The position numbers and the translations under genes were made by a program. Below, piece after piece: positions 22,993 to 59,399 of a DNA stretch of 64,000 bases. Under the pieces are notes generated by a model. The model did no database searches. It was not told the DNA's origin and saw only the letters and a program-made list of their open reading frames with translations. Origin of the DNA: a virus; the IMG/VR virus record IMGVR_UViG_3300030090_007211, positions 1 through 64,000 of that record. One strand, given 5' to 3'. Numbering within the stretch: the first letter of the stretch is position 1; every line of letters begins with the position of its first letter.

Positions 22993-24720
22993 TTATCTTA
23001 ATTGATTGATATCGAAAGTTACAACACCATCAACTGTTACTTTACCATAGAAACGGTTATTAACCATTTTCTTAGCGTAACGTGTCATGATACCTTTAGT
23101 AGGTGCAAAGTTGAATGGGTTTTGTAATGTAGGTGTCAATTGTAATGGTACGTAAGGTGCGTAAATGTACCCAGTATCCAACAATGATTTACCTTTATGT
23201 CCAACTATGATTGAGTTAGCTGGTGCATATGGATCACGATATACAGTATATCTTCCACCTAATGAACCAATTTTCTCAATACCCATGTTGTATTGATCTT
23301 GCTCAGGAGCTGCGTTAGATACGTGGAAGTATTCTAAGTCATCAAAAATAGCTGATACCTCAGAAGATACTATCACGAAGTTAGCACCACCTCTTAGAGT
23401 TGATTTATGGATTTGAGCAGATACTTGGTTGATTGTAGTAATCAATGTTTGATTCCACTCTTTTTGAGTGTAAGCATTGAAACCACCATCACCAGCAGTT
23501 CTTTTCCATCCATTATAATCCCATCTCATAGCCCAAGCTGCACCATTTCTCAAATCTCTCATGATTTCTCTGTCGATTTCAGCTGCTACTTGCTCAGAAA
23601 GTAAAGCTGTTAATTCAGCTTCAGCATCAATGTTATGGAATGCACTAACGTCTTGCGCTAGTTCAGGAGACCAAGTTGCTCTTAATTTTCTCTCTGTCAC
23701 TGCAACAACTACTTCGTCAAGTTCAAAAGAAACTTCACCCATTTCAGTCGCAAATTCTAGAGATGCATATGAACCCCAACTTACATTACCTATAACTTCT
23801 AACTCTACTGATTCAGAACCTTGGTATCCGTTAACGATATTAGCGTCACAATCAACACAAGCAGGACATCTAAGGTCTAGCTCAATTAATAGACAACCAT
23901 CAGGAGTACAAATATCACCATAGTTAACGATTCCTCTACCATATTGTTGTGCAACTACATTGTAAGGAATTGGTGTTCCAGCATCAATGTTACCACCTGC
24001 ACACTCAATAGGTTTATCAGCAGTTACTACTAATGAAGAAAGGAAAGTTTCAGTATCCATTTCATTTCCATCAGGACCAGTTAATCTACCTGCACCTGTA
24101 GTTGAGAAACCAGAAACACAAATTGTAGCACTTACACCACCATTTGCATCCATTTGTTCCGAAACAGTTTTAGCAGAAAGAGATCCATCAGGCATTACAA
24201 CTTGACCAGTAAATGATCCAGTAGTAATTGTTAATGTACCTTTAGACGCATCAAACATACCATTGTTGTAAAATACATCATAAAGTGATTTTTCCAAGAA
24301 TTCAGATGTTTGTGTTCCTGCACAAGCACTGAATACACATTCTTGACCTGGAAGTGCTGGCCCGTTAAGAGGAGCATGATTTCTTCCAGTTGTTTTAGGT
24401 ACAAAGTAAAATAATTTTCCGATTGGCATGTTCATCGCCTGTACCGATACGATATCGTTAGCCAATAATTTAGAGAATACCCTTCTTACGATAGGGAAAA
24501 CTACAGTTTCGAAAGAACCAGATGAACTAGCATCTGTAGCTTCGTTCAATAGAGCAGAAGCTTGGTTTTCATATAACTGAGCAATGTTCTCTTTTACGTG
24601 ACCTTTTAAACCTTCTAAGAATCCTAAAGAATCCCATTTTCCGATGGTTTTAGATCTGATTTGTTTCAAGTGTTCAAGTCCGATATTTCCAACTTCACCT
24701 GAATTTAATAAATGTCCCAT
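22993..24720 (-). CDS. Major capsid protein, T4 gp23-like
   Basis: 575 residues. Position (after protease and scaffold genes, followed by a strong terminator), size and the layout of the N-terminus match T4 gp23. An acidic helical propeptide of 60 residues ends in SALLNE-ATDASS, a consensus (I/L)xE site for a T4-type prohead protease (T4 cuts gp23 after Glu65). After it, FPIVRRVFSKLLANDIVSVQ and MPIGKLFYF are typical of the gp23 core, and the C-terminal RDPYAPANSIIVGHKG is similar. A Cys-rich insertion near residues 265-300 (CTPDGCLLIELDLRCPACVD) is unusual and might bind metal or stabilise the shell. Confidence 0.85.
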   Translation of the reverse strand: MGHLLNSGEVGNIGLEHLKQIRSKTIGKWDSLGFLEGLKGHVKENIAQLYENQASALLNEATDASSSGSFETVVFPIVRRVFSKLLANDIVSVQAMNMPIGKLFYFVPKTTGRNHAPLNGPALPGQECVFSACAGTQTSEFLEKSLYDVFYNNGMFDASKGTLTITTGSFTGQVVMPDGSLSAKTVSEQMDANGGVSATICVSGFSTTGAGRLTGPDGNEMDTETFLSSLVVTADKPIECAGGNIDAGTPIPYNVVAQQYGRGIVNYGDICTPDGCLLIELDLRCPACVDCDANIVNGYQGSESVELEVIGNVSWGSYASLEFATEMGEVSFELDEVVVAVTERKLRATWSPELAQDVSAFHNIDAEAELTALLSEQVAAEIDREIMRDLRNGAAWAMRWDYNGWKRTAGDGGFNAYTQKEWNQTLITTINQVSAQIHKSTLRGGANFVIVSSEVSAIFDDLEYFHVSNAAPEQDQYNMGIEKIGSLGGRYTVYRDPYAPANSIIVGHKGKSLLDTGYIYAPYVPLQLTPTLQNPFNFAPTKGIMTRYAKKMVNNRFYGKVTVDGVVTFDINQLR

Positions 24721-24759: not shown

Positions 24760-26385
24760 CTACGAAATTCTTTTCATTAAATCTTTTATCGCTGTAATTT
24801 GAGGATCTACATATGCTGTAGACTCATTCAAATCCGATTTAGAAGACTTAACAGTCTTATTGACTTTATTTTCAACAGATTCCGTAATAGGTGTTTTAGT
24901 ATCTAACTCACCTTTTACTGTTTTATAAATGTTTTTAGATTCCTTAATACTTTCTGCACCATCAAACTTTTTTAAGATTTCCATCTTTTCAGTTTTAGTT
25001 GTAGAATGTTCAGTAAACAATCTATTCACATATGCTAAATTTGTATTAAATAAAGCAACTTCGTTTAATTTGTTTTTGAAAACTTTAAGAGCTTCTTTAT
25101 ATTCTTCATTTTTCTTTTTCAGCTCTTTGTATTCTTTAACAATTTTAGAATCAGCAACTTTTCCTGCATTTTTAGGGGTTCTTCTTCTTTCTGAAAGTGG
25201 TTTACGAGCTTTACGGTTTTCATTAGCATATGCTGTACCAGCTTTCTGTCCACCATATCTTTGTCTACCGCCGCCATAAGCACCATCTTGTCTATTATTT
25301 TGAGTTTTATCTTCTTCAAGATAATCATCTGGATGTTCACCTTGATCACCATGTGATTCACCATCTTTACCATGATACCCTTTATCGGTACCTTTGTAAT
25401 GTGGATAATCACTTCTAGTTTTAGACTGATCACCTTTTCTAGCGCCGCCTTCATCTAAGTAATCATCAGGTTCTCCTTGATCACCATGTGATTCACCATC
25501 TTTACCGTGGTATCCTTTATCAGTACCTTTGTAATGAGCGTAATCACTTCTAGTTTTAGATTGGTCACCTTTTCTAGCACCACCTTCATCTAAGTAATCC
25601 TCTGGATGTTCACCTTGATCACCATGTGATTCACCATCTTTACCATGATAACCTTTGTCAGTACCTTTGTAATGAGCGTAATCTGTACGTGTTGCAGATT
25701 GATCACCTTTCATAGCACCATCGTGTTCATCTAACTCAATTTCATAAACAATTTCTTCAGATAAGTCATCACCACATCCTTCACCTTCACAAAGTTCATC
25801 ATCTTCATAAACTTCTTCAGATTCTTTAATGTAGTATTCAGCTCCTGTTTCATTGTCTGTTAAGTGAATTCCATCTTCATCTTTAATAACCTCAACTTCA
25901 TCTTCATCGCCCATTTTCTTAAATACGGCAATAACTTCTTCATCAGACGCACCAGTTAAATCAAGTTCTTCATCATCACCCAAATCTAAATCGATTGGTA
26001 ATTCTGCAACTTCAATTTCTTCTTCTGCATCTTCTAAATCATCTGCTAAAGCATCAAGATCAAGATCTAATTCCAATTCATCAGCTTCTGCATCTTCTGC
26101 ATCTTCTTCTGAATCTTCTCCAGCATCTATTAAAACTAATTCTTCAGACTCTTCGTCTTCTTCTTGTTCTTTTAATACTGGCACTTCCGTTTTCTCATCG
26201 GACCCTTCAACGATATCGTTCTTCGGTTCTTCGTCTTCCGCTTTTAAAGACGACTCTACGATACTTTCAATTTCTTGCTTCATATGAGTGGCAAGCATTT
26301 CTTTCGTATTGGCTTTTAAGGCATCCTCTAAAGACTTCGCTTCTAACAAAGCCTCTTCGATGATTGATTTTCTTTTTGTAGCCAT
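24760..26385 (-). CDS. Prohead core scaffold-like protein with tandem repeats
   Basis: 541 residues from the ATG at 26385 (MATKRKSIIEEALLE-A), preferred over an upstream start because it gives a scaffold/leader-like helix ending in LLE. Residues about 50-215 are extremely acidic (long Glu/Asp runs). Residues about 225-358 consist of three near-identical units of about 45 residues (KGDQS.TR.DY.HYKGTDKGYHGKDGESHGDQGE). The C-terminal 150 residues are Lys/Glu helices. Location between protease and capsid genes is that of T4 gene 22 (scaffold core). It probably shapes the prohead and is then degraded by the protease; the repeats are not part of known gp22. Confidence 0.7.
   Translation of the reverse strand: MATKRKSIIEEALLEAKSLEDALKANTKEMLATHMKQEIESIVESSLKAEDEEPKNDIVEGSDEKTEVPVLKEQEEDEESEELVLIDAGEDSEEDAEDAEADELELDLDLDALADDLEDAEEEIEVAELPIDLDLGDDEELDLTGASDEEVIAVFKKMGDEDEVEVIKDEDGIHLTDNETGAEYYIKESEEVYEDDELCEGEGCGDDLSEEIVYEIELDEHDGAMKGDQSATRTDYAHYKGTDKGYHGKDGESHGDQGEHPEDYLDEGGARKGDQSKTRSDYAHYKGTDKGYHGKDGESHGDQGEPDDYLDEGGARKGDQSKTRSDYPHYKGTDKGYHGKDGESHGDQGEHPDDYLEEDKTQNNRQDGAYGGGRQRYGGQKAGTAYANENRKARKPLSERRRTPKNAGKVADSKIVKEYKELKKKNEEYKEALKVFKNKLNEVALFNTNLAYVNRLFTEHSTTKTEKMEILKKFDGAESIKESKNIYKTVKGELDTKTPITESVENKVNKTVKSSKSDLNESTAYVDPQITAIKDLMKRIS
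25311..25712 (-). repeat. Three tandem in-frame repeats of about 135 bp
   Basis: Three consecutive copies of about 135-138 bases in the scaffold-like gene encode units of 46, 45 and about 44 residues that differ at only a few positions (for example DYAHYKG versus DYPHYKG). The bases also match closely, indicating recent tandem duplication or gene conversion. Confidence 0.85.
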
Positions 26386-26427
26386 CGTAATTTTTAATTT
26401 TTTATCGATATTATTATAATAATTAAT

Positions 26428-26444
26428 GCGCACCAACTGGCGCC
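26428..26444 (-). promoter_or_regulatory. GC-rich element in the scaffold gene leader
   Basis: GGCGCCAGTTGGTGCGC on the minus strand, a GC-rich block with partial dyad symmetry (GCGC at one end, GGCGCC at the other), in a genome of very low GC. It lies in the untranslated leader between the late-type motif at 26451-26462 and the ATG at 26385. It could be a hairpin controlling scaffold synthesis. Confidence 0.3.
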
Positions 26445-26495: not shown

Positions 26496-27188
26496 TTATT
26501 CTGACAAAAAGTCGTCTAAAGAATCAATTAAAAGATCTTTGTCCTTTTTTGTATCAGATTCGGACATTTGTTGCTCCCTAGTAGGTTCTTCATTATATAT
26601 CCAAGAACCCGGAGTTGAGGGTGATGTAACCACATCCCAACATATTAATTCGAAATCATCTTGTACGATATTTTTACCATTTTCTTTTTGTAAAGAACCA
26701 ACCCCTCTAGAAGAAACACCAATTTTTAATCCTTTACGTAAAAGATTTGCTACTTGGTCACCTTCACATGAAATAATACCTTGATTTACAAAACCTGGAG
26801 ACATAATAATTTCTAGTTTACCCATTAATACGTTTCCTTCCCACCATAATTCTACTACATTATGAGAGATACGGCTAATTGCTACTATAGAAGATTCAGG
26901 GTGATCTGCTTCTCCCATCGCTCTTTTATCTTTAATGAGTTTTAAATAATTTTCTGCTTCTTTACGAAGAATACTTTCAGGGTATATTCTACCATTACGA
27001 TTTTCTACTCCGTATTTTTGCATAACTGCATAAACAACTAAAGGTTCTTCTACAATAGATTCACCTCTAGTTAATTTATTTATTTCGTTTATGAAATGTT
27101 TATTATCTTTTGGGGATATATAACCGGCATCATATTCTATTAAGATACCTTTTTTATTTACTTCGTTTCCTTTTAATATGTCCATCAT
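26496..27188 (-). CDS. Prohead protease, T4 gp21-like
   Basis: 230 residues. A serine protease of the prohead type that cleaves scaffold, capsid propeptides and leaders of internal proteins during head maturation. Signature segments: NRNGRIYPESIL (63-74), GEADHPESS (92-100, catalytic His96), LKIGVSSRGVGSL (154-166, catalytic Ser160) and DVVTSPSTPGS (185-195, Asp185). The C-terminal LIDSLDDFLSE contains possible self-cleavage sites. The start could be either of two adjacent ATGs. Confidence is high because motifs and gene neighbourhood agree. Confidence 0.92.
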   Translation of the reverse strand: MMDILKGNEVNKKGILIEYDAGYISPKDNKHFINEINKLTRGESIVEEPLVVYAVMQKYGVENRNGRIYPESILRKEAENYLKLIKDKRAMGEADHPESSIVAISRISHNVVELWWEGNVLMGKLEIIMSPGFVNQGIISCEGDQVANLLRKGLKIGVSSRGVGSLQKENGKNIVQDDFELICWDVVTSPSTPGSWIYNEEPTREQQMSESDTKKDKDLLIDSLDDFLSE

Positions 27189-28851: not shown

Positions 28852-30801
28852 TTACTTTTCTTCGGTTTCAATTATCTTATCTATCTCTTTAGACATTTCT
28901 TCTATTTTATTATTTAAAGTGTCTACTTCTTCATCCATCTCACCTAAATCATAGATTTTTTCCTCTTTATCTAAACTTTCTACTAATCTATCATAGTATA
29001 TATTATTATATTTTTTAATTTTTTTATCTAATTTTTTCTTACTTTCTTCTACTAATAAATTTTCTTTCTTCTTAGTAGATTCTACAGGCATTTCTGCATC
29101 TGCAATTTCACCTCCTTCTGTAGCACCTGCATCTGTGGCAGCAGCACTTTCCATACCACCTGCAATATCAGCCCCAAAGTCTGCCCCAAAATCGGCACCA
29201 CCGGTATCACCACCAGTATCGCCTCCTTCAGCACCTCCTTCAGCACCTTCTCCACTTCCACCAAATTCACCATAAAGAGTATCTACTCTATCAAACACAC
29301 CAGTTTTCTTAATTACTGTGGATGTTTGTTCCATTTCTGCACTAGCAGCTTTTTCCATTCTTTGTTGTTCTAAATCTACCCTTATCTCTTCTTCAGACAT
29401 ACCTAAAATATCTCTTTTAGCTCTAGTCATTGAATAAGCACCAAATCCATTTCCTGCATCGGATACTGCATCTTTATAAAGAGTAACTTTCAATTGAGTT
29501 TGTTCAACCTTTAACATCTCCGCTTGGGTAGAAGGATTATTTAAAGAAAGAGTAAAATTTTCTAACTCATCCTCCAACCCTAAAAGGTAAAGATGAATTA
29601 TAGCAATTTTATTTAATTCTTGAATAATTGCTTGTTGTACTCTATTAATAGTTTTAGAAAATCTAATATCTTGTAATGCCAAATTTTTCCCTTCTCCTGT
29701 TACCTCTTCAAAATTTAAAAACGCTTTAGGAACTCTCAAAGCGGTAAATAATTTTTTCTGTAGAAATTGAATGTCTGCAATTTCGGAAAGATTAGTTGCA
29801 CCTGGAAGAGTATCTATTGGGCTTGGTGCATTAGGATCTCTAACAGGGATAAAATAATCTTGATCTTGTGCCATTTGATTATAACGTGTATCTACTTGAC
29901 CTGTTTGTTGATCGATTACCGGACTTCTTTTGAAATTATTAGCAATTTTATTAACATAAGCAGGAACATCTTTTTCATCTATATTACCAACAAATATTTT
30001 AAAGATTCTTCTTTCAGGTGCTCTGGTTACCCTATAGATTAACATTGCATCTTCTGACAATAATAATTGCTTCCAAATTCTTCTTGCCTTTTCTAATATA
30101 GATGTACCATAAGGTAATCTTCTATCATCACCTAGCAATCTAAAATGGGCTACTTGCCACGCATTAAATTCTAATTCTTTTTGTCCCCATTGAAACTTAA
30201 CAGGATTAAATCTATCTTCAGTAGATGTAGTAGTGTTAACACCAAACCCATCGTTTTCTTTTCTACTTATTTCTATGTTAGGTAATTGTTTAACTCCTTG
30301 TACACCATTTTCACTATCCATACTTAAATAAAGGAAATTATCCCCATATTTACAAGTGTTTCTTACCCACATAGGTAAATTAGTATGTATATCTAATCTA
30401 TTGAAAAATAAGTCTTGTAAAACTCTTCTAACTCTTTTACTCTCAGAAAATATGTTAAGGATTCTACCTTCTCCATTAGGTGTGGTAGATTCTTCCATAA
30501 ATATATCTAATGCTGCAGCAATTTCAGGGAAAAATTCCATTCCTTCATAATCTGCATAAGACGCTAAACGGGTAGTTTCATAATAGATAGAATGTTGATA
30601 TATTTCATTATCTACTTTTTTCCATTGATTATTTAAAAATGCATCTTGTTGTAGTTGCAACTTTTGAAAATCGTATTCTTCTTTAGATTGAGTTTTTAAA
30701 AGTTCTTTATCATTTAATGAATATCTAGATTTATTTTCTCTGGTACTTCTTTCAGGACCAAATAAATCACTTAATTGTTGAAATATTGTTTTTCTTGCCA
30801 T
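28852..30801 (-). CDS. Portal protein, T4 gp20-like
   Basis: 649 residues. It forms the dodecameric DNA entry ring at one head vertex. gp20-type segments: YADYEGMEFFPEIAAALDIFMEE, WVRNTCKYGDNFLYL, WQVAHFRLLGDDRRLPYGTSILEKARRIWKQL, the RAPERRIFKIFVGN stem region and LFTALRVPKAFLNFEEVTGEGKNLALQDIRF. From about residue 510 to 575 there is an unusual Gly/Ala/Asp-rich tract (EGGAEGGDTGGDTGGADFG) followed by a charged coiled-coil tail with LLVEE and VESLDKE sites. Neither belongs to the standard portal fold. The tail may contact the scaffold core. Confidence 0.9.
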   Translation of the reverse strand: MARKTIFQQLSDLFGPERSTRENKSRYSLNDKELLKTQSKEEYDFQKLQLQQDAFLNNQWKKVDNEIYQHSIYYETTRLASYADYEGMEFFPEIAAALDIFMEESTTPNGEGRILNIFSESKRVRRVLQDLFFNRLDIHTNLPMWVRNTCKYGDNFLYLSMDSENGVQGVKQLPNIEISRKENDGFGVNTTTSTEDRFNPVKFQWGQKELEFNAWQVAHFRLLGDDRRLPYGTSILEKARRIWKQLLLSEDAMLIYRVTRAPERRIFKIFVGNIDEKDVPAYVNKIANNFKRSPVIDQQTGQVDTRYNQMAQDQDYFIPVRDPNAPSPIDTLPGATNLSEIADIQFLQKKLFTALRVPKAFLNFEEVTGEGKNLALQDIRFSKTINRVQQAIIQELNKIAIIHLYLLGLEDELENFTLSLNNPSTQAEMLKVEQTQLKVTLYKDAVSDAGNGFGAYSMTRAKRDILGMSEEEIRVDLEQQRMEKAASAEMEQTSTVIKKTGVFDRVDTLYGEFGGSGEGAEGGAEGGDTGGDTGGADFGADFGADIAGGMESAAATDAGATEGGEIADAEMPVESTKKKENLLVEESKKKLDKKIKKYNNIYYDRLVESLDKEEKIYDLGEMDEEVDTLNNKIEEMSKEIDKIIETEEK

Positions 30802-32692: not shown

Positions 32693-33529
32693 TTAAAATG
32701 CGACTAATTTATCGTTTTTCCACGCCTCATAATTAGGACCTAATTCATAGGTAATTGTTCTCCCATCTCTAACTGGTTTAACTATACCTGCATTTACTGC
32801 CGCCCTAAAAAATGTTGAGTGTTGTCCAGATGTTCTCCCTTTAGAATTAATATATTCTAAAAATCCTGCTTTTGTTTTCTTAGGTTTATCTTGAATATAA
32901 TTTATGAGTGATTGTATCATACCGTCTTTCTTTTCAAAGGTAAGTCCCGCAACCTTATTGAATATTTTTATTCCATTTTGTGCTGCAAAATTTTGAATGT
33001 TTTGTCTTATTTCATCATCAAAACCTCTACCCCATGTTTTTCCATATAAATTAGATACTAATTGTATTGCTTTCTTAGGGGGATTATTTGTAAAAATATA
33101 TTCTATTGCATCTTCTATTGACAATTGTATTCTTTCCAGTGTTTCATTTCCTGCAACTGCATCATCAAATAATCTATATATTTGAAATAACTCTGCTGCT
33201 TTTTGTGGGGGTGATAAATCAGATTCCATTACATCATCACTAAATTTTGATGCAATAGCATGTACATATCTTATATAAGGTCTAGGGTCAAATCCCCTAT
33301 AACCATATCGAATAAGATTATCTAAAAGTTTATACCCAATCATATGATATAAACTTTCATCTTCTATAACTTCCTCCACACTAAAACCATAGATATCTAC
33401 TAATAATGGGAATATATCTTCTAACTCAGAATTTTCAATCTGTTTATAAACCTTATCCATAAACACCTGATGTTTGGCGTTTTCCATCATTACTCTTCTA
33501 TGTTGTGATTCTGTTAATTTAATCTTCAT
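32693..33529 (-). CDS. Putative internal virion protein with capsid-targeting leader
   Basis: 278 residues from the ATG at 33529, chosen because it gives the recurrent leader MKIKLTESQHRRVMME; an ATG at 33541 adds four residues. The body is helical (LIRYGYRGFDPRPYIRYVHAIASKF, PPKKAIQLVSNLYGKTWGRGF). The C-terminal 60 residues (KAGFLEYINSKGRTSGQHST, then FFRAAVNAGIVKP and GRTITYELGPNYEAW) look like a winged-helix/DNA-binding domain. Candidate cleavage after MME is atypical (Met at P3). Its start region overlaps the end of the next gene by about 4 bases of coding context. Confidence 0.6.
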   Translation of the reverse strand: MKIKLTESQHRRVMMENAKHQVFMDKVYKQIENSELEDIFPLLVDIYGFSVEEVIEDESLYHMIGYKLLDNLIRYGYRGFDPRPYIRYVHAIASKFSDDVMESDLSPPQKAAELFQIYRLFDDAVAGNETLERIQLSIEDAIEYIFTNNPPKKAIQLVSNLYGKTWGRGFDDEIRQNIQNFAAQNGIKIFNKVAGLTFEKKDGMIQSLINYIQDKPKKTKAGFLEYINSKGRTSGQHSTFFRAAVNAGIVKPVRDGRTITYELGPNYEAWKNDKLVAF

Positions 33530-33533
33530 AATA

Positions 33534-34784
33534 TTACGCACTCATTTCTAAATAATTATCTAAACTCTCCTCAAACCATTCTTTCGCTTTTGTAGTATCG
33601 GGGTAATAATAATCTAAATTAGGTAATTCTAACAACCCACTTTCTTCATCTAAGAGGGTTTTTACTACATCTATAAAATATGATTCTTGTTCTTCAGGAA
33701 ATACACCTTCTGTATCAATATAATGTTGTAATACCTTATCTATTAATTCAGTAGATATTGGTACCTTTAAATTGTATTTTGCACTATCCCCACTTTTAGT
33801 GTTTCTTACCCATTCTGGTTTACTACCAAATAACTCAGTAATTTCTTCCACTGCCCTCTCTCTTATATCATTTTCTACCACATCATTTATTGTGCTGTGG
33901 TATGCACTTCTCATATCCCTTTCTAATTCACCTAATTCATTGTGACTTAATAAAAATTCTAACACATCTTCTCCATCTACTTCATTATTTTTTATCTGTG
34001 TCCTTAATGTATTAATAAAAGTTGGGTTAATATCTAAGAAATCACCATCATCCCCTAAAACCTCTTCAGGCATACCCATTTCATATAAATCTTCTAATCC
34101 CTGACCACCAATCATAATTTTGTCTGTATATGCAGGAATAGATTCTATCACCTTATCCATTGCCTTTCCTGTCATATCTGATATTATCTCATCTCTAGGG
34201 GTATCCCAATAAGAAAAGAACTCACTAAAATCTTCACTAAATGCCTCTTCTGCTAAATCTCTATCATAAAATAATTCGGCGAAATCATCCCACCCATCAA
34301 TAGATAACACCATATTAGGATATAATCCTTCGGTGTCATTAAATGACATATTATCATAATAATTAAGTTTTATAGGTTTTTTATCATTATAATTTATTTC
34401 CCCAGTGTTAAACTTCTTATTAAACCAACCTAACTTTTTTAATATGTCATATATGGGACTATATTCTCTCCACCTAATAAACTCATCTATTTGGAATTCA
34501 CCAAATACATCCCCACCAACCTCATGATTCCAGTTAGACTTAGGGTCTAATGTCCACTTTATGAAAAAATATAAAACTACATCATAGTCTAACCCAACCA
34601 TTTCACCAAAATAAGTTAATACATCTGCAATGTTATCAAATCTAAAACCTGTTTTAAATGAATCATCATCTTCATCTCTCCATATTTTAAAAAACTCTCT
34701 ATTAAATAGACGAAACAACATGTTTTCTATTTTAGGGCTATCTTCAATAGTCTCTTTAATTATATGTTTAAATGTTAATTTCAT
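33534..34784 (-). CDS. Putative internal virion protein with short leader
   Basis: 416 residues, acidic, no domain recognised. Leader MKLTFKHIIKE-T with a perfect IKE site. The body is rich in Asp, Trp and aromatic residues (FKIWRDEDDDSF, LSIDGWDDFAELFYDRDLAEEAF) and looks helical and globular. It is encoded in a chain of four genes (33,534-36,084) that each carry a version of the leader and overlap or nearly overlap. Confidence 0.6.
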   Translation of the reverse strand: MKLTFKHIIKETIEDSPKIENMLFRLFNREFFKIWRDEDDDSFKTGFRFDNIADVLTYFGEMVGLDYDVVLYFFIKWTLDPKSNWNHEVGGDVFGEFQIDEFIRWREYSPIYDILKKLGWFNKKFNTGEINYNDKKPIKLNYYDNMSFNDTEGLYPNMVLSIDGWDDFAELFYDRDLAEEAFSEDFSEFFSYWDTPRDEIISDMTGKAMDKVIESIPAYTDKIMIGGQGLEDLYEMGMPEEVLGDDGDFLDINPTFINTLRTQIKNNEVDGEDVLEFLLSHNELGELERDMRSAYHSTINDVVENDIRERAVEEITELFGSKPEWVRNTKSGDSAKYNLKVPISTELIDKVLQHYIDTEGVFPEEQESYFIDVVKTLLDEESGLLELPNLDYYYPDTTKAKEWFEESLDNYLEMSA

Positions 34785-44039: not shown

Positions 44040-44501
44040 TTATGAAATCTCTATCTTTCTATTTTCTTTTTTATTTTTAGTTGGAGTTAATTTTGGTAAA
44101 AACAAAGTAGTGATACCGTTTTCCACTTTTGCATGAATTTCATCTGCCACTACATTTTCAGGTAATGGGAATGTACGATAAAATTTTGAAGAATGGAATT
44201 CTTTAGAGATGTATTCTCCGTTATCTTTGTGTTCAATCACTCTTTCCCCTTTAACTGTTAACATATTATTTTCTAATTCTACTGATAATTCTTTTTTAGT
44301 AAAACCAGGAGTGGCTAATTCATATTTATAAGACCACTCATCTTCAAATACATTAGTAGTAGGTAAATTTTGAGAATAATCTCTTTTAGTTACCGGTACT
44401 TTGTTATTTAATCCCCTTACAAATGGGTAGGTGGTTGAATTACTCCAAAAGAAATCCTCATTTAGGAAGTCTCTTAAAAAATCATTAAAATTGTTTTTCA
44501 T
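44040..44501 (-). CDS. Small heat-shock protein, Hsp20 family
   Basis: 153 residues. An alpha-crystallin domain spans residues about 45-140: YKYELATPGFTKKELSVELENNMLTVKGER, then FYRTFPLPENVV and AKVENGITTLFLPK, the typical edges, with the G-I/V-T-L-x-L/I-P signature. The short N-terminal arm is aromatic. Such holdases bind unfolded proteins; T4-like phages often carry one. It may protect abundant virion proteins during assembly, together with the ClpC-like unfoldase encoded nearby. Confidence 0.9.
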   Translation of the reverse strand: MKNNFNDFLRDFLNEDFFWSNSTTYPFVRGLNNKVPVTKRDYSQNLPTTNVFEDEWSYKYELATPGFTKKELSVELENNMLTVKGERVIEHKDNGEYISKEFHSSKFYRTFPLPENVVADEIHAKVENGITTLFLPKLTPTKNKKENRKIEIS

Positions 44502-52499: not shown

Positions 52500-54125
52500 T
52501 TACGCAGTTAAATAACCAATACCATCAGGATCAGCTTCAAATGCGTCATATGCTTCTCTATTTTTAGGTGATAGGTTATCTAAGTCAACACCAACTAATA
52601 CAAAACGAGCTAATGACTCTCTTACTAATATTTCTAATGGTTCAATATTAATTTTAGTAATAGGGTTTTTACTGAAATTCATTACAAAACATTGAGTTAA
52701 TTTTTCATAACCTTTTAAAGGAACCTCTTTTATTTGGTTATCTGTCATCGTAAGAATTTCTATATCATTTGGTAAGTAATCTGCTGGTGGTATTTTTTCT
52801 AACCCACATTGATTGGCTGAAATTCTTGTGGCATTTTTAAACTCTGATAAATCAGGTAATTCAGTCAATGGCATATTACTGAAATCTAAAACATCCATAT
52901 CTTTATTAAGATAATCAGTAACAACTACACCATCCGTATGTTCCATTAACCATTTAAGGTATCTATTATTTTGTAATGGTCCTTGATCTTCAGATGCTTG
53001 TCGTCTTATACTTTCTACACCTTCTTTATAAACTTCATCAGTTATAACGTCTTGGGCTTTCCCACCAAACATTGCAAGATATTTAATATACTTACTATCC
53101 ATTAATCCAGATCCCTGTCTAATGTCTTGAGTTGCTAACGCCCCTAATTCTTTTTTGAAGAAATCTTTTAATCCACCATATTTACCAACAATCGCTGGTA
53201 ACTTATCTCTTTCGATACTTCGGTTATTCTTATCATGCAACTGACCAGATTCAAAATGGAATTGTAATGGGAAGGTTCCTTCTCCATCATCACCATCAAA
53301 TAATTCTTTAGGCATTACTACATAATAATCTGAAAGAGTACCATCTGGTTTAGGATTGTTTTTTCTATAAGAATCAAAATAACTATTTCCTTCTCTACGT
53401 GTACACCAAGATGCTAAATTTCCTAATGGTTCACAACTAGATTCTATAGTTTGTGGAGTATAAACTAATACACCTCCATCTCTATACGCTAATTTAGCGT
53501 GTCCTAAATCGATATATTTTTTCATTTTATTCCATAAAGGATTACCACCTTCACCATCATCATCATCCGCCCCAATAAATGGACTCACTACTGAATATAA
53601 ATGAGCTAAATCACTATATTGATTAATATCACTTACATTCTGTGGTGCATTAGGTCTATTAGGTGCACCAGTTTTAAATACTTTTTTCTTTCTTACATTA
53701 TCAAATACCCCTAAGTATTCATTTGCTTCGGGCAAATCTTCTGTTAAAAATCTAACTGCCTGATCAATATCATTATCTTTAATGTGTCTACCAAACACTT
53801 GAATCATCCATTGAACGAATTCTTTTTTCTGTGTAGGATCCGCCTCTACAATATCGTTAAATATTTCTTCGGTAAGCTTAATAGATGTTTTTCCTTTTTT
53901 ATTAGTAACTACATAAGCAATATCCACACCATCATGTCCTTGAATAGCTTCAATATTAACTTTTTTTCTCATACCCCCTTCTGGGCGCTCTCCATCTTTC
54001 TCGTCTTGACCTTCAGTATTATCATCAAGTAATTTTTTATCTATAACATTTTGGGTTTTTAAATATGATACCCTATCCTCTTTAATTAATACTTTAAATT
54101 GACTTTCAGTTACTATATATTTCAT
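52500..54125 (-). CDS. Leucine-rich-repeat virion-type protein with leader
   Basis: 541 residues. Leader MKYIVTESQFKVLIKE-D with an IKE site. The central region (LGNLASWCTRREGNSYFDSY; PLQFHFESGQLHDKNNRSI) is a conserved-looking module with a WCT motif. Residues about 415-490 form short leucine-rich repeats (LDFSNMPLTELPDLSEF, IEILTMTDNQIKEVPL), a protein-binding fold rare in phages but usual in injected bacterial effectors. If the leader works as proposed, this protein would be packaged and delivered into the host. Confidence 0.65.
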   Translation of the reverse strand: MKYIVTESQFKVLIKEDRVSYLKTQNVIDKKLLDDNTEGQDEKDGERPEGGMRKKVNIEAIQGHDGVDIAYVVTNKKGKTSIKLTEEIFNDIVEADPTQKKEFVQWMIQVFGRHIKDNDIDQAVRFLTEDLPEANEYLGVFDNVRKKKVFKTGAPNRPNAPQNVSDINQYSDLAHLYSVVSPFIGADDDDGEGGNPLWNKMKKYIDLGHAKLAYRDGGVLVYTPQTIESSCEPLGNLASWCTRREGNSYFDSYRKNNPKPDGTLSDYYVVMPKELFDGDDGEGTFPLQFHFESGQLHDKNNRSIERDKLPAIVGKYGGLKDFFKKELGALATQDIRQGSGLMDSKYIKYLAMFGGKAQDVITDEVYKEGVESIRRQASEDQGPLQNNRYLKWLMEHTDGVVVTDYLNKDMDVLDFSNMPLTELPDLSEFKNATRISANQCGLEKIPPADYLPNDIEILTMTDNQIKEVPLKGYEKLTQCFVMNFSKNPITKINIEPLEILVRESLARFVLVGVDLDNLSPKNREAYDAFEADPDGIGYLTA

Positions 54126-54151: not shown

Positions 54152-54430
54152 TTAAATCGAATTAATTAACAAATTTAAACGCACTGATTTGGAATTTATT
54201 TTTTCCATCACCGATAAAAACACTTTTCTATCATTTTCTTTGTCTGTAATACGGTACTTTATTTCATCAATTAATTTAAATTCACCTATGTTATTTAATT
54301 CATCTAAAATACTATCATAGGTTAACCATTGGCGTTTAGTATCTGCGCCTGCACCATTTATTTTTTCAAACACAAACATTTTATAATTATAATCTAATTC
54401 TCTCTCTATAGGTAATTTTTCCTTATTCAT
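54152..54430 (-). CDS. Unknown small protein
   Basis: 92 residues, helical and charged (MNKEKLPIERELDYNYKMFV...FLSVMEKINSKSVRLNLLINS), no leader. Its start overlaps the stop of the cell-wall hydrolase gene by 4 bases, so it is translationally coupled to it. Possibly an accessory or inhibitor of that enzyme; this is inference from position. Confidence 0.55.
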   Translation of the reverse strand: MNKEKLPIERELDYNYKMFVFEKINGAGADTKRQWLTYDSILDELNNIGEFKLIDEIKYRITDKENDRKVFLSVMEKINSKSVRLNLLINSI

Positions 54431-55245
54431 GCCCCCCTTCCTTTAAATTCTTTTGCCCAATTAGTTTTAGTATCCCTACCAAATTCATGATCTAACCCTT
54501 CTGGTCCGTGAGAAATCCAATATTTACTTTTCTTTCCCCATGATGGATTAACTTTACTTGGGTTATAATAATGAGTTGCACCTTCAGTATTATCATTAAA
54601 GTTTGCACCTTTTAGTAGAAGTTTAGCATACTTAACTGCATTATCCCAAGAAGGTCTATTCATATATCGTTTATCCTTCATGATTTGGTTTATAGATTTT
54701 TCATCTATTTTAACTGGTTGATAAGGATTCCATCCTGAAAATTGTTTATTTTTTAAAACTATATCTAATATACTTCCTTGTCCTGCACTACTTCTATTTG
54801 CAATTACATTTGCAATTGCTTTTATTTCTTCTTCATCATTACTATATTTTTCCATTGCTAATGTCATAGCCACTATTTTAACCGGTAAAGATAAAATAGG
54901 GGGTGCTTTAAATCCTAACTTACGTAAAACTTGTGAACCAATTTCTATACTTTTTAAGTCTTTATATTGAGTATTAAAAAGTTTACCTATCATTAGTGAA
55001 GTTTTATCCCCAAAATCATTATCAGGTTTAAATTTTATTTCATCTGCATATTCAGGAAATTTATCATACAATTTTTGTTGGATTTGTATTAAGGGAGAAT
55101 CTTTTTTAGATTGCATAAATCCATGTTTGAAAGTGTCAAATCCATACCATAGGTCGTTAAAAGTAATATCATCTCTATTAATAACACCTAAGATATCTTC
55201 ATTTAGTAATTTATTAAATTGTTCTTCCGTTAATAAAATCTTCAT
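54427..55245 (-). CDS. SleB-type cell-wall hydrolase with capsid-targeting leader
   Basis: 272 residues. Leader MKILLTEEQFNKLLNE-D; the LLNE site is the same four residues as in the major capsid protein. A peptidoglycan-binding-like segment (KFKPDNDFGDKTSLMIGKLF) is followed by the SleB/Hydrolase_2 catalytic domain: EKYSNDEEEIKAIANVIANR, VLKNKQFSGWNPY, and TEGATHYYNPSKVNPSWGK with GLDHEFGR at the end. It cleaves peptidoglycan glycan strands. A head-packaged wall hydrolase would be delivered with the DNA, perhaps opening the wall for genome entry or acting from inside. Confidence 0.8.
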   Translation of the reverse strand: MKILLTEEQFNKLLNEDILGVINRDDITFNDLWYGFDTFKHGFMQSKKDSPLIQIQQKLYDKFPEYADEIKFKPDNDFGDKTSLMIGKLFNTQYKDLKSIEIGSQVLRKLGFKAPPILSLPVKIVAMTLAMEKYSNDEEEIKAIANVIANRSSAGQGSILDIVLKNKQFSGWNPYQPVKIDEKSINQIMKDKRYMNRPSWDNAVKYAKLLLKGANFNDNTEGATHYYNPSKVNPSWGKKSKYWISHGPEGLDHEFGRDTKTNWAKEFKGRGA

Positions 55246-55252
55246 TTTATAT

Positions 55253-55272
55253 AATATTTATAAATAAATATA
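55253..55272. promoter_or_regulatory. Two-way late-type motif
   Basis: AATATTTATAAATAAATATA reads as ATATTTATAA on the plus strand (34 bases before the HNH gene) and as ATATTTATTTATAA on the minus strand (8 bases before the hydrolase ATG). It is the only near-symmetrical copy and sits between the two divergent genes. Confidence 0.45.
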
Positions 55273-56255: not shown

Positions 56256-56804
56256 TTAATTATCTTGATTTAATCTTCTATGGTATCTTCCTGCAACATT
56301 ATAAAACATTTCACCTAATTTTGATATATGTTCACCTAATGTATTTAACTTTTCTGCCACATGTAAGGTAAGATCCTCTTTACTCATATCTATCCCTAAC
56401 CCGTATAATGTCGGTCGGGGCACACCTTTATGAATTGATACTGACGTATCACTCAATAATTTAAAATATTTTAATATTTTTTGTAGAGTATTACTATAAC
56501 CAATGATTAAATTTTTAAAATCATCATCAACATAGATTTCTTGACTTAACTCTTTTAATCTTTTAATGTCAGATTGGAATTTGTTACCAAAATTAAAAAT
56601 GGCAGCCATTACATTATCTTTACTTAATTCACCACTTTGTAATCCTTCAATGAATTCCCCTAAAAGATTTACTGTTTCCGAAGTTAAATGTCTTAACTCA
56701 CCTTGTAAATTACCTGCATGACTTTGCATGGTAAAGATGTCATCATAACCCCCTACTTCTTTTAATACTCTTTTTAATTGACTTTCTTTTAATTTTATTT
56801 TCAT
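56256..56804 (-). CDS. Helical virion-type protein with capsid-targeting leader
   Basis: 182 residues. Leader MKIKLKESQLKRVLKE-V, a perfect LKE site. The rest is all-helical (ELRHLTSETVNLLGEFIEGL; IIGYSNTLQKILKYFKLLSD). No domain recognised. Its own late-type motif lies 14 bases upstream. Presumed internal head protein. Confidence 0.65.
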   Translation of the reverse strand: MKIKLKESQLKRVLKEVGGYDDIFTMQSHAGNLQGELRHLTSETVNLLGEFIEGLQSGELSKDNVMAAIFNFGNKFQSDIKRLKELSQEIYVDDDFKNLIIGYSNTLQKILKYFKLLSDTSVSIHKGVPRPTLYGLGIDMSKEDLTLHVAEKLNTLGEHISKLGEMFYNVAGRYHRRLNQDN

Positions 56805-58568: not shown

Positions 58569-58918
58569 CTTTTACCACCCTTATATTCTATAGCATGTCC
58601 TTCATTTATTAAAGTTTTTTGTAATGATATATCTCCTAGGGTTTCTACAAATAATTCCCCTAAACATCTACCATACTTCCCAACTCCATGGGATTTTAAT
58701 ATAAATACATTGTTATTTTCATTTAGTATCTCTATAACTCTATCTTTAGCAGCTAATCCACGTTTTTTTTCTTCTAAATCTCTAGTTCTACTTTCGGGAG
58801 CATCTATTCCTTGAAATCGTATTCTCACCTTTTTCCACGTATCAAATCCTAAGTCCACCAATGCATCCAACGTATCTCCATCTATAACACGATCCACTTT
58901 AGCGTTATACGTATACAT
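58565..58918 (-). CDS. Thermonuclease (SNase) family protein
   Basis: 117 residues. VDRVIDGDTLDALVDLGFDT (8-27), VRIRFQGIDAPESRTRD (31-47) and GKYGRCLGELFVE (80-92) reproduce the SNase fold and its catalytic Arg/Asp/Glu positions. It would cleave DNA or RNA with calcium. No leader or signal peptide, but its gene is locked between two leader genes by overlaps of 4 and 14 bases. It may attack host DNA in the cell, or bind a packaged partner. Confidence 0.88.
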   Translation of the reverse strand: MYTYNAKVDRVIDGDTLDALVDLGFDTWKKVRIRFQGIDAPESRTRDLEEKKRGLAAKDRVIEILNENNNVFILKSHGVGKYGRCLGELFVETLGDISLQKTLINEGHAIEYKGGKR

Positions 58919-59399
58919 TTTTTTCGATTATTCTAATTTTATCGTGTGGTAATAAAACTTTTAAAGTTCTACCATTTTCCCATTTTACCTCTAAGTGTTC
59001 TTCAGGTTCTCCTGAAAAAACATGTGAGGATATGTTTTTAACAACACCTTTTGTTCCTTTAGGTATTGCGTTTACTTCATCCTCCATATTAATCATTTCA
59101 ATGGTATCACCAACCATTGGGTAATCGTCATCATACAAATACCTAGCAAATTTATCTAAAATAGTTAAATAAAAATCTTCATCCTCCAAATAATCTAAAC
59201 TATAAACACTCTCAATATGTGGTATTACTTCATTATTAAGTATACTCTTAATAGTCTTAAAAGAATACATATAGCCATCACCAAAAAATTCAATTAATCT
59301 TTCTTCATTGAATGTATTAACTAAATCATCAAAAATTACATCCTTTAATGATCTTTTTTGTGTTTCTTCTCTTAATATATTTTTAATGATATATTTCAT
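58905..59399 (-). CDS. Virion-type protein with leader and DUF4314-like C-terminus
   Basis: 164 residues. Leader MKYIIKNILRE-E, LRE site. A helical middle (SLKDVIFDDLVNTFNEERLI) precedes a C-terminal SH3-like domain (MVGDTIEMINMEDE, IPKGTKGVVKNIS, LEVKWENGRTLKVLLPHDKI), similar to DUF4314. The domain may bind peptide or nucleic acid. Expressed with the SNase and zinc peptidase genes from one late-type motif. Confidence 0.65.
   Translation of the reverse strand: MKYIIKNILREETQKRSLKDVIFDDLVNTFNEERLIEFFGDGYMYSFKTIKSILNNEVIPHIESVYSLDYLEDEDFYLTILDKFARYLYDDDYPMVGDTIEMINMEDEVNAIPKGTKGVVKNISSHVFSGEPEEHLEVKWENGRTLKVLLPHDKIRIIEKNVYV

What the first reader, a model, noticed from the sequence alone, without database searches (positions are those of the whole stretch)
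54427..55245. Cell-wall hydrolase that appears to be packaged inside the head
The SleB-type hydrolase carries the leader and the same LLNE cut site as the major capsid protein. Wall hydrolases of tailed phages usually sit on the tail tip or are made late as endolysins. A head-packaged one would have to pass through the tail, and would place wall-degrading activity in the host at genome entry, or be released with the DNA in the periplasm.
Basis: partly seen in the sequence, partly recalled or inferred. Interest (0 to 1): 0.7.

Follow-up and report, generated by a model that had tools for sequence, protein, structure and literature searches.

The report
Wall-cutting enzyme tagged for phage head
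A virus of bacteria appears to put a cell-wall-cutting enzyme, together with dozens of other proteins, inside its own head by means of a short removable address tag, so that the enzyme could be delivered with the viral DNA; the tag and its cutting site are well supported by comparison, but the delivery itself has not been shown.

Summary
The ORF at 54427-55245 (-) is a SleB-type lytic transglycosylase (PF07486; fold matches 4FET/4F55). It has a 16-residue N-terminal leader, MKILLTEEQFNKLLNE, ending in the motif cut in this phage's gp23 capsid protein (LLNE|A).

The leader behaves as a separate sorting signal. All five full-length orthologue loci keep it and an [IL]-x-E end. Similar leaders sit on about 45 unrelated proteins of this 152-kb T4-type genome. 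In an independent IMG/VR sample, 23 of 27 unrelated proteins picked only by leader residues 1-12 have [ILVM]xE next, against 13% by chance (p about 3e-17). Across orthologues P1 Glu and P3 Ile/Leu are kept while P2 drifts, as T4 gp21 specificity predicts. One orthologous PG-binding protein has swapped leader class. About 25 sampled SleB relatives in other viruses lack it, with one exception.

A T4-like capsid-targeting leader removed by the S77 prohead protease is the best explanation (0.65). Action on the wall at entry is inference: T7 gp16 is a precedent for a head-packaged wall hydrolase, and I found none in a T4-type phage. The genome also has a leaderless, membrane-anchored M23 peptidase better suited to lysis.

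The parts
54427..55245 (-). SleB-type cell wall hydrolase precursor, 272 aa; mature form of 256 aa predicted (29.3 kDa, pI 9.2)
   Evidence: PF07486 4.9e-10; fold match 4FET/4F55; mass and pI
55198..55245 (-). 16-residue leader MKILLTEEQFNKLLNE; predicted prohead-protease cut after Glu16 (LNE|D)
   Evidence: kept in all five full-length orthologue loci with [IL][NS]E ends; lone helix 7-15 with low-confidence break at 16-19 in the model
54910..55101 (-). helical N-terminal domain, residues 49-112, resembling a peptidoglycan-binding domain
   Evidence: high-confidence helical part of the model; the resemblance is by eye, Pfam did not call PG_binding_1 here
54526..54834 (-). Hydrolase_2 (SleB) catalytic domain as matched by Pfam
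54850..54852 (-). Glu132 codon, the presumed catalytic glutamate
   Evidence: invariant in 29 aligned SleB domains
55255..55271 (-). promoter-like ATATTTAT (55264-55271) and TATAAATA (55255-55262) upstream of the hydrolase start
   Evidence: ATATTTAT within 40 nt upstream of 20/46 leader genes, 5/7 head genes, 22/130 other genes
54152..54430 (-). 92-aa soluble protein overlapping the hydrolase stop codon; homologue in the same place in relatives; not a holin by sequence
22993..24720 (-). gp23-type major capsid protein with propeptide 1-60 ending LLNE|A
26496..27188 (-). gp21-type (S77) prohead protease, the presumed processing enzyme
   Evidence: PF03420 1.3e-24; phrog_207 head maturation protease
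52500..54125 (-). neighbouring leader protein MKYIVTESQFKVLIKE|D, 541 aa, orthologues keep the leader
56256..56804 (-). neighbouring leader protein MKIKLKESQLKRVLKE|V, 182 aa
57489..58568 (-). leader protein of another class, MRKLIKNILKE|E, metalloprotease-like (phrog_87 1.2e-5)
58905..59399 (-). leader protein MKYIIKNILRE|E with a DUF4314 domain
32693..33541 (-). leader protein MKIKLTESQHRRVMME|N next to the terminase gene

Best explanation
The protein is a capsid-targeted internal protein of a T4-type phage. Its 16-residue N-terminal leader works like the T4 capsid-targeting sequence (CTS): it recruits the enzyme into the prohead core. The phage's S77 prohead protease then cuts after Leu-Asn-Glu16, the same kind of site it cuts in the major capsid protein. 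The basic 29-kDa mature enzyme, a SleB lytic transglycosylase with a probable peptidoglycan-binding region, stays with the DNA and is most likely ejected with it at infection. There it could cut peptidoglycan locally where the tail tube crosses the wall, a job like that of the T7 gp16 transglycosylase. Shown here by sequence: the enzyme family, the leader, its [IL]xE end, its spread over unrelated proteins, its conservation in orthologues, the cognate protease and the matching capsid site. Inferred: packaging, cleavage, ejection and action at entry; the last two are the weakest steps (action at entry about 0.35).
For: Leader kept in all five full-length orthologue loci with ends LNE, INE, ISE, LNE, LNE. 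Same leader class on unrelated proteins, with [ILVM]xE in 23/27 against 12.8% background, p = 3e-17, in a sample chosen without the motif. In 44 orthologue pairs P1 Glu is kept in 38, P3 [ILVM] in 41, P2 identical in 21, as expected for an L/I-x-E protease like T4 gp21 (PMC9026906). MCP site [LIMV]xE in 79/79 relatives. S77 protease and gp23 in the same genome. Leader-class swap between orthologous PG-binding proteins. The three further full-length orthologue contigs tested have S77, none of 22 leaderless SleB contigs does. Upstream ATATTTAT shared with head genes. No signal peptide or membrane segment in the leader; downstream neighbour not holin-like; a separate leaderless TM-anchored M23 peptidase exists in the genome.
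Against: No virion or cleavage data. The P1' residue (D, E, K, N) differs from the capsid site (A, S, T). Injected T4-type internal proteins are thought to reach the cytoplasm, where a wall enzyme has no substrate. A leader-like start also sits on a protein with a tail-lysozyme domain in another contig (L258). S77 was found in only 17 of 35 leader contigs of 30 kb or more (fragments; 5 of 5 at 175 kb or more).
Confidence: 0.65

Rival explanations
1. Ordinary endolysin: the SleB enzyme is made late, accumulates in the cytoplasm and is released by a holin to break the wall at lysis; the leader is vestigial or has another role.
For: PHROGs label the best matches endolysin. SleB proteins are considered lysis enzymes in Vequintavirinae (PMC7344957). 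The upstream element suggests expression with head genes, also fitting a late lysis gene.
Against: The leader is kept with its [IL]xE end in every orthologue, which a vestigial tag would not require. No holin-like neighbour, no signal peptide (the Certrevirus SleB has one, PMC7344957). A TM-anchored M23 peptidase without leader is present.
Confidence: 0.2
2. The leader is a targeting signal for another virion part (tail or baseplate) or an assembly site, and the enzyme works as a tail-associated lysin.
For: A protein with Phage_lysozyme2 and PG_binding_1 domains in another viral contig starts MKIRTLIE|G. The T4 tail-tip lysozyme is the usual wall enzyme of such phages (general knowledge).
Against: The [IL]xE end matches the prohead protease site, and in T4 gp21 acts on head proteins (PMC9026906). 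The L258 contig showed no S77 gene and is a fragment, so it is weak evidence either way.
Confidence: 0.1
3. The leader and the LLNE motif are coincidence: a common amphipathic N-terminal helix with a chance match to a three-residue motif.
For: L/I-x-E is short, and some apparent leaders do fail, such as the HSP20 at 44040-44501, whose relatives lack the motif.
Against: p = 3e-17 in an independent sample; retention of P1 and P3 in orthologues while P2 changes; leader-class swap with the end kept.
Confidence: 0.05

Closest known systems
T4 internal proteins IPI, IPII, IPIII and Alt with capsid-targeting sequences, processed by gp21 (PMC9026906, PMC3012670)
   Same: Short N-terminal leader (10-19 residues for the IPs) on otherwise unrelated proteins; [LI]-x-E at its end; cognate S77 protease and gp23 with the same motif.
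   Different: About 45 candidate proteins instead of a handful; several interchangeable leader classes; cargo includes wall-active enzymes. Packaging and cutting are not demonstrated here.
T7 gp16 internal virion protein with a lytic transglycosylase domain (PMC8954989)
   Same: A lytic transglycosylase carried in the head and ejected to act on the wall, if the present reading is right.
   Different: gp16 is a 1318-residue ejectosome subunit of a short-tailed phage with a different catalytic family and no protease-removed leader described in the passages read; here a small SleB enzyme in a T4-type phage.
SleB / Hydrolase_2 phage hydrolases (Vequintavirinae, roseophages, many IMG/VR phages)
   Same: Same catalytic family, with invariant Glu and QFS.WN and HYYNP motifs.
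   Different: About 25 sampled relatives lack the leader, and S77 was not found in their contigs; Vequintavirinae SleB is considered a lysis enzyme with a signal peptide (PMC7344957).
Giant phage head proteins of SPN3US and phiKZ processed by gp21 relatives (PMC10052503, PMC9026906)
   Same: Many head proteins, some with short propeptides (20 and 24 residues), cut after x-E motifs by a gp21 relative.
   Different: Motif A-x-E or S/A-x-E there; about 80% of SPN3US head proteins are uncut; no shared N-terminal leader reported in the passages read.

Membership tests
T4-type capsid-targeted internal protein | Short N-terminal leader (10-19 residues) shared by otherwise unrelated proteins | tested here: met
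   16 residues; class found on 27 proteins with unrelated mature parts and about 45 ORFs of this genome
T4-type capsid-targeted internal protein | Leader ends in L/I-x-E | tested here: met
T4-type capsid-targeted internal protein | Cognate prohead protease and capsid protein with the same motif in the genome | tested here: met
   PF03420 and PF07068; MCP site
T4-type capsid-targeted internal protein | Expressed with the head genes | tested here: inconclusive
   shared upstream ATATTTAT element only, Fisher p = 0.0005 for leader genes against others
T4-type capsid-targeted internal protein | Present in heads and cut in vivo | not testable with these tools
   needs virion proteomics
SleB / Hydrolase_2 lytic transglycosylase | Family profile match above the curated cut-off | tested here: met
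   PF07486 40.4 bits against cut-off 27
SleB / Hydrolase_2 lytic transglycosylase | SleB fold and conserved catalytic Glu | tested here: met
   4FET/4F55 best matches, probability 1.00; Glu132 invariant in 29 sequences
SleB / Hydrolase_2 lytic transglycosylase | N-terminal peptidoglycan-binding domain | tested here: inconclusive
   helical domain in the model, but no Pfam call
SleB / Hydrolase_2 lytic transglycosylase | Muralytic activity | not testable with these tools
   needs a zymogram
Canonical endolysin in a lysis cassette | Adjacent holin, or a signal/anchor sequence on the enzyme | tested here: not met
   no hydrophobic N-terminal segment; overlapping neighbour soluble
T7 gp16-type ejectosome protein | Very large core protein with an N-terminal transglycosylase domain | tested here: not met
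   272 aa with a SleB fold against 1318 aa for T7 gp16 (PMC8954989)

The most novel reading that the evidence does not exclude
Members of this T4-type clade, probably infecting Bacteroidota, use the head as a delivery vehicle for dozens of proteins sorted by interchangeable, protease-removed leaders. The cargo includes a wall-active set: a SleB transglycosylase, an NlpC/P60 endopeptidase and further peptidoglycan-binding proteins, acting from the injected side at infection. To my knowledge it would be the first capsid-packaged wall hydrolase in a T4-type phage and an unusually large protein payload for this genome size.
Probability: 0.4. Interest if true: 0.78.

Novelty: new variant of a known kind. 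Interest (0 to 1): 0.6.

Why it matters
It extends the T4 internal-protein principle from a handful of small proteins to about 45 ORFs in one genome and to wall-active enzymes. It gives a sequence rule (leader plus [IL]xE end) that makes the head cargo of uncultivated phages predictable and testable. It also raises a mechanistic question: how an enzyme carried in the head of a T4-type phage would reach its periplasmic substrate.

Tried and rejected
Megablast of the region and tblastn of a leader consensus against cultivated phages: no match. First IMG/VR scan with the single hydrolase sequence: none; with the three-sequence alignment it worked. The first AlphaFold run on five sequences was poor (mean pLDDT 53.7); the 29-sequence run was usable (75.5). 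A T4-style TATAAATA late promoter was tried first: its genome-wide excess is small (77 against 65 expected); ATATTTAT is the better marker. HSP20 at 44040-44501 was first counted as a leader protein and withdrawn because relatives lack the motif. The NlpC/P60 leader protein gave no relatives in IMG/VR or in cultivated phages at the sensitivity used. No paper in the library contains the leader sequence MKIKLTESQ.

Full report
WHAT IS THERE. The window is bases 1-64000 of a 151,931-base IMG/VR virus record. It holds a T4-type head module on the minus strand: gp23 capsid protein 22993-24720, scaffold-like acidic protein 24760-26436, S77 prohead protease 26496-27188, portal 28852-30801 and a terminase with T4-type Pfam matches. 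ORF 54427-55245 (-) encodes 272 aa with a Hydrolase_2 (SleB) domain at residues 138-240. An AlphaFold model from 29 aligned sequences (mean pLDDT 75.5) has the SleB catalytic domains 4FET and 4F55 as its best solved matches (probability 1.00, target TM 0.64-0.68, E 0.007-0.016). Glu132 is invariant in 29 SleB domains. In the model residues 7-15 form a lone helix, followed by a break with pLDDT below 50 at residues 16-19, where the cut is predicted.

THE LEADER IS A MODULE. The N-terminus MKILLTEEQFNKLLNE belongs to a class (MKIKLTESQ-x-K-R-L/I-L/I-x-E) found on many ORFs of this genome. Other classes are MRKLIKNILKEE, MGRLGKLKRQLIEEANKRLLxE and MKFLDILNE; in all I count about 45 ORFs by reading. 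That count is a judgement, and at least one early member (HSP20, 44040-44501) was withdrawn. Full-length SleB orthologues occur in five IMG/VR records (L105 to L109, two of them with the same protein sequence), all with the leader. They end LNE, INE, ISE, LNE, LNE in the four distinct relatives and the window protein. The linker that follows is the least conserved part of the protein (38% mean pairwise identity against 59% for the leader and 60% for the catalytic part). About 25 more distant viral SleB proteins that I translated have no such leader. The one exception, L127, carries a leader of a different class (MKDLIRKIIKEE|T) fused to a minimal 153-aa SleB.

TESTS AGAINST CHANCE. (1) I scanned IMG/VR with a degenerate DNA pattern covering leader residues 1-12 only. 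Of 27 proteins with unrelated mature parts, 23 have [ILVM]xE at residues 12-22, against 12.8% of equal windows in the same proteins (p = 3e-17). (2) Over 44 orthologue pairs of leader proteins, P1 Glu is kept in 38 and P3 [ILVM] in 41, but P2 is identical in only 21. This is the pattern expected from a protease that reads L/I-x-E, the specificity of T4 gp21 (PMC9026906). (3) The capsid protein's own site is [LIMV]-x-E in 79 of 79 relatives. (4) A peptidoglycan-binding protein (record 70161-71072) carries a GRIEKIKRQLIEEANKRVLNE leader, while its orthologues carry an MKKVIKLKESDLQRIVKRVISE-type leader: the leader class changed while the mature part and the [IL]xE end stayed. (5) ATATTTAT lies within 40 nt upstream of 20/46 leader genes and 5/7 head genes but 22/130 others (p = 0.0005 for leader genes); the hydrolase has it.

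LITERATURE FRAME. T4 internal proteins have 10-19-residue propeptides that target them into the prohead core and are removed by gp21, which cuts after L/I-X-E; their mature parts are diverse and only the targeting sequence is conserved (PMC9026906; PMC3012670). That description fits what is seen here. Wall hydrolases inside the head are known from T7 gp16 (PMC8954989; PMC6116005). I found no report of one in a T4-type phage in the library searched, and no paper containing this leader sequence.

WALL-ACTIVE CARGO. The same genome has three more leader-bearing proteins with peptidoglycan-binding domains: 81266-82249 (NlpC/P60 + PG_binding_1, MLIKITESQFKKIILRE|D), 82962-84470 (PG_binding_1, MKILVTESQFKKLILKE|Q) and 70161-71072 (PG_binding_1). 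Next to the first two is a leaderless M23 peptidase with an N-terminal membrane anchor (84504-85079), a better candidate for ordinary lysis. The gene that overlaps the hydrolase stop codon (54152-54430) has a homologue in the same place in relatives and is soluble by its sequence, so there is no holin-like partner there.

WHAT IS NOT SHOWN. No experiment shows packaging, cutting or ejection. S77 was found in 17 of 35 leader-bearing contigs of 30 kb or more, and in all five of 175 kb or more; fragments may explain the rest, but this is not proof. Residue P1' differs from the capsid site. One leader-like N-terminus sits on a protein with a tail-lysozyme domain (L258), so a tail destination for some of these proteins cannot be excluded. 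How an injected enzyme would reach the periplasm is open. That the host is a member of Bacteroidota is my inference from the T9SS sorting domains and the Flavobacterium phages among the closest cultivated relatives.

VERDICT. Observation confirmed; capsid targeting well supported by inference (0.65); wall attack at entry plausible only. New variant of a known kind.

Noticed in passing
record G000: L004:9791-11068 (112791-114068 -), L005:11435-15037 (133935-137537 -), L005:15188-18328 (137688-140828 -): Three phage proteins carry Por_Secre_tail sorting domains of the Bacteroidota type IX secretion system, one with an M43 metalloprotease and two with MAM and PKD domains: the phage may have the host secrete or display its own proteins.
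   Followed up: partly
record G000, about 45 ORFs, mostly 22-84 kb, 127-131 kb and 141-151 kb: Capsid-targeting-like leaders of several classes sit on about 45 proteins of one 152-kb genome, including DUF192, DnaJ-zinc-finger-like, nucleotidyltransferase-like and metalloprotease-like proteins.
   Followed up: partly
L091-L094 (Flavobacterium phage immuto, MW353176), record 102-119 kb: A cultivated relative has leader-like N-termini (MENFDLKKFLVEN, MKKSQLRQIIKE, MKKQILSEQFRRMQ) clustered directly upstream of its terminase and portal genes; a ready test system.
   Followed up: partly
window upstream regions, e.g. 55264-55271; 21-26 nt before many starts: ATATTTAT is a strand-specific upstream element enriched before leader and head genes, a likely late promoter unlike TATAAATA.
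   Followed up: partly
24760-26436 (-): The acidic scaffold-like protein next to the capsid gene holds three copies of a repeat KGDQSxTRxDYxHYKGTDKGYHGKDGESHGDQGE.
   Followed up: no
L258:97-2463: A 789-aa protein with Phage_lysozyme2 and PG_binding_1 domains starts with a short leader-like MKIRTLIE|G in another viral contig.
   Followed up: partly
record G000 84504-85079 (-) and 82306-82965 (+): TM-anchored M23 peptidase and a lipoprotein-like M54-type protein beside the leader-bearing NlpC/P60 protein: a possible lysis or envelope gene cluster.
   Followed up: no
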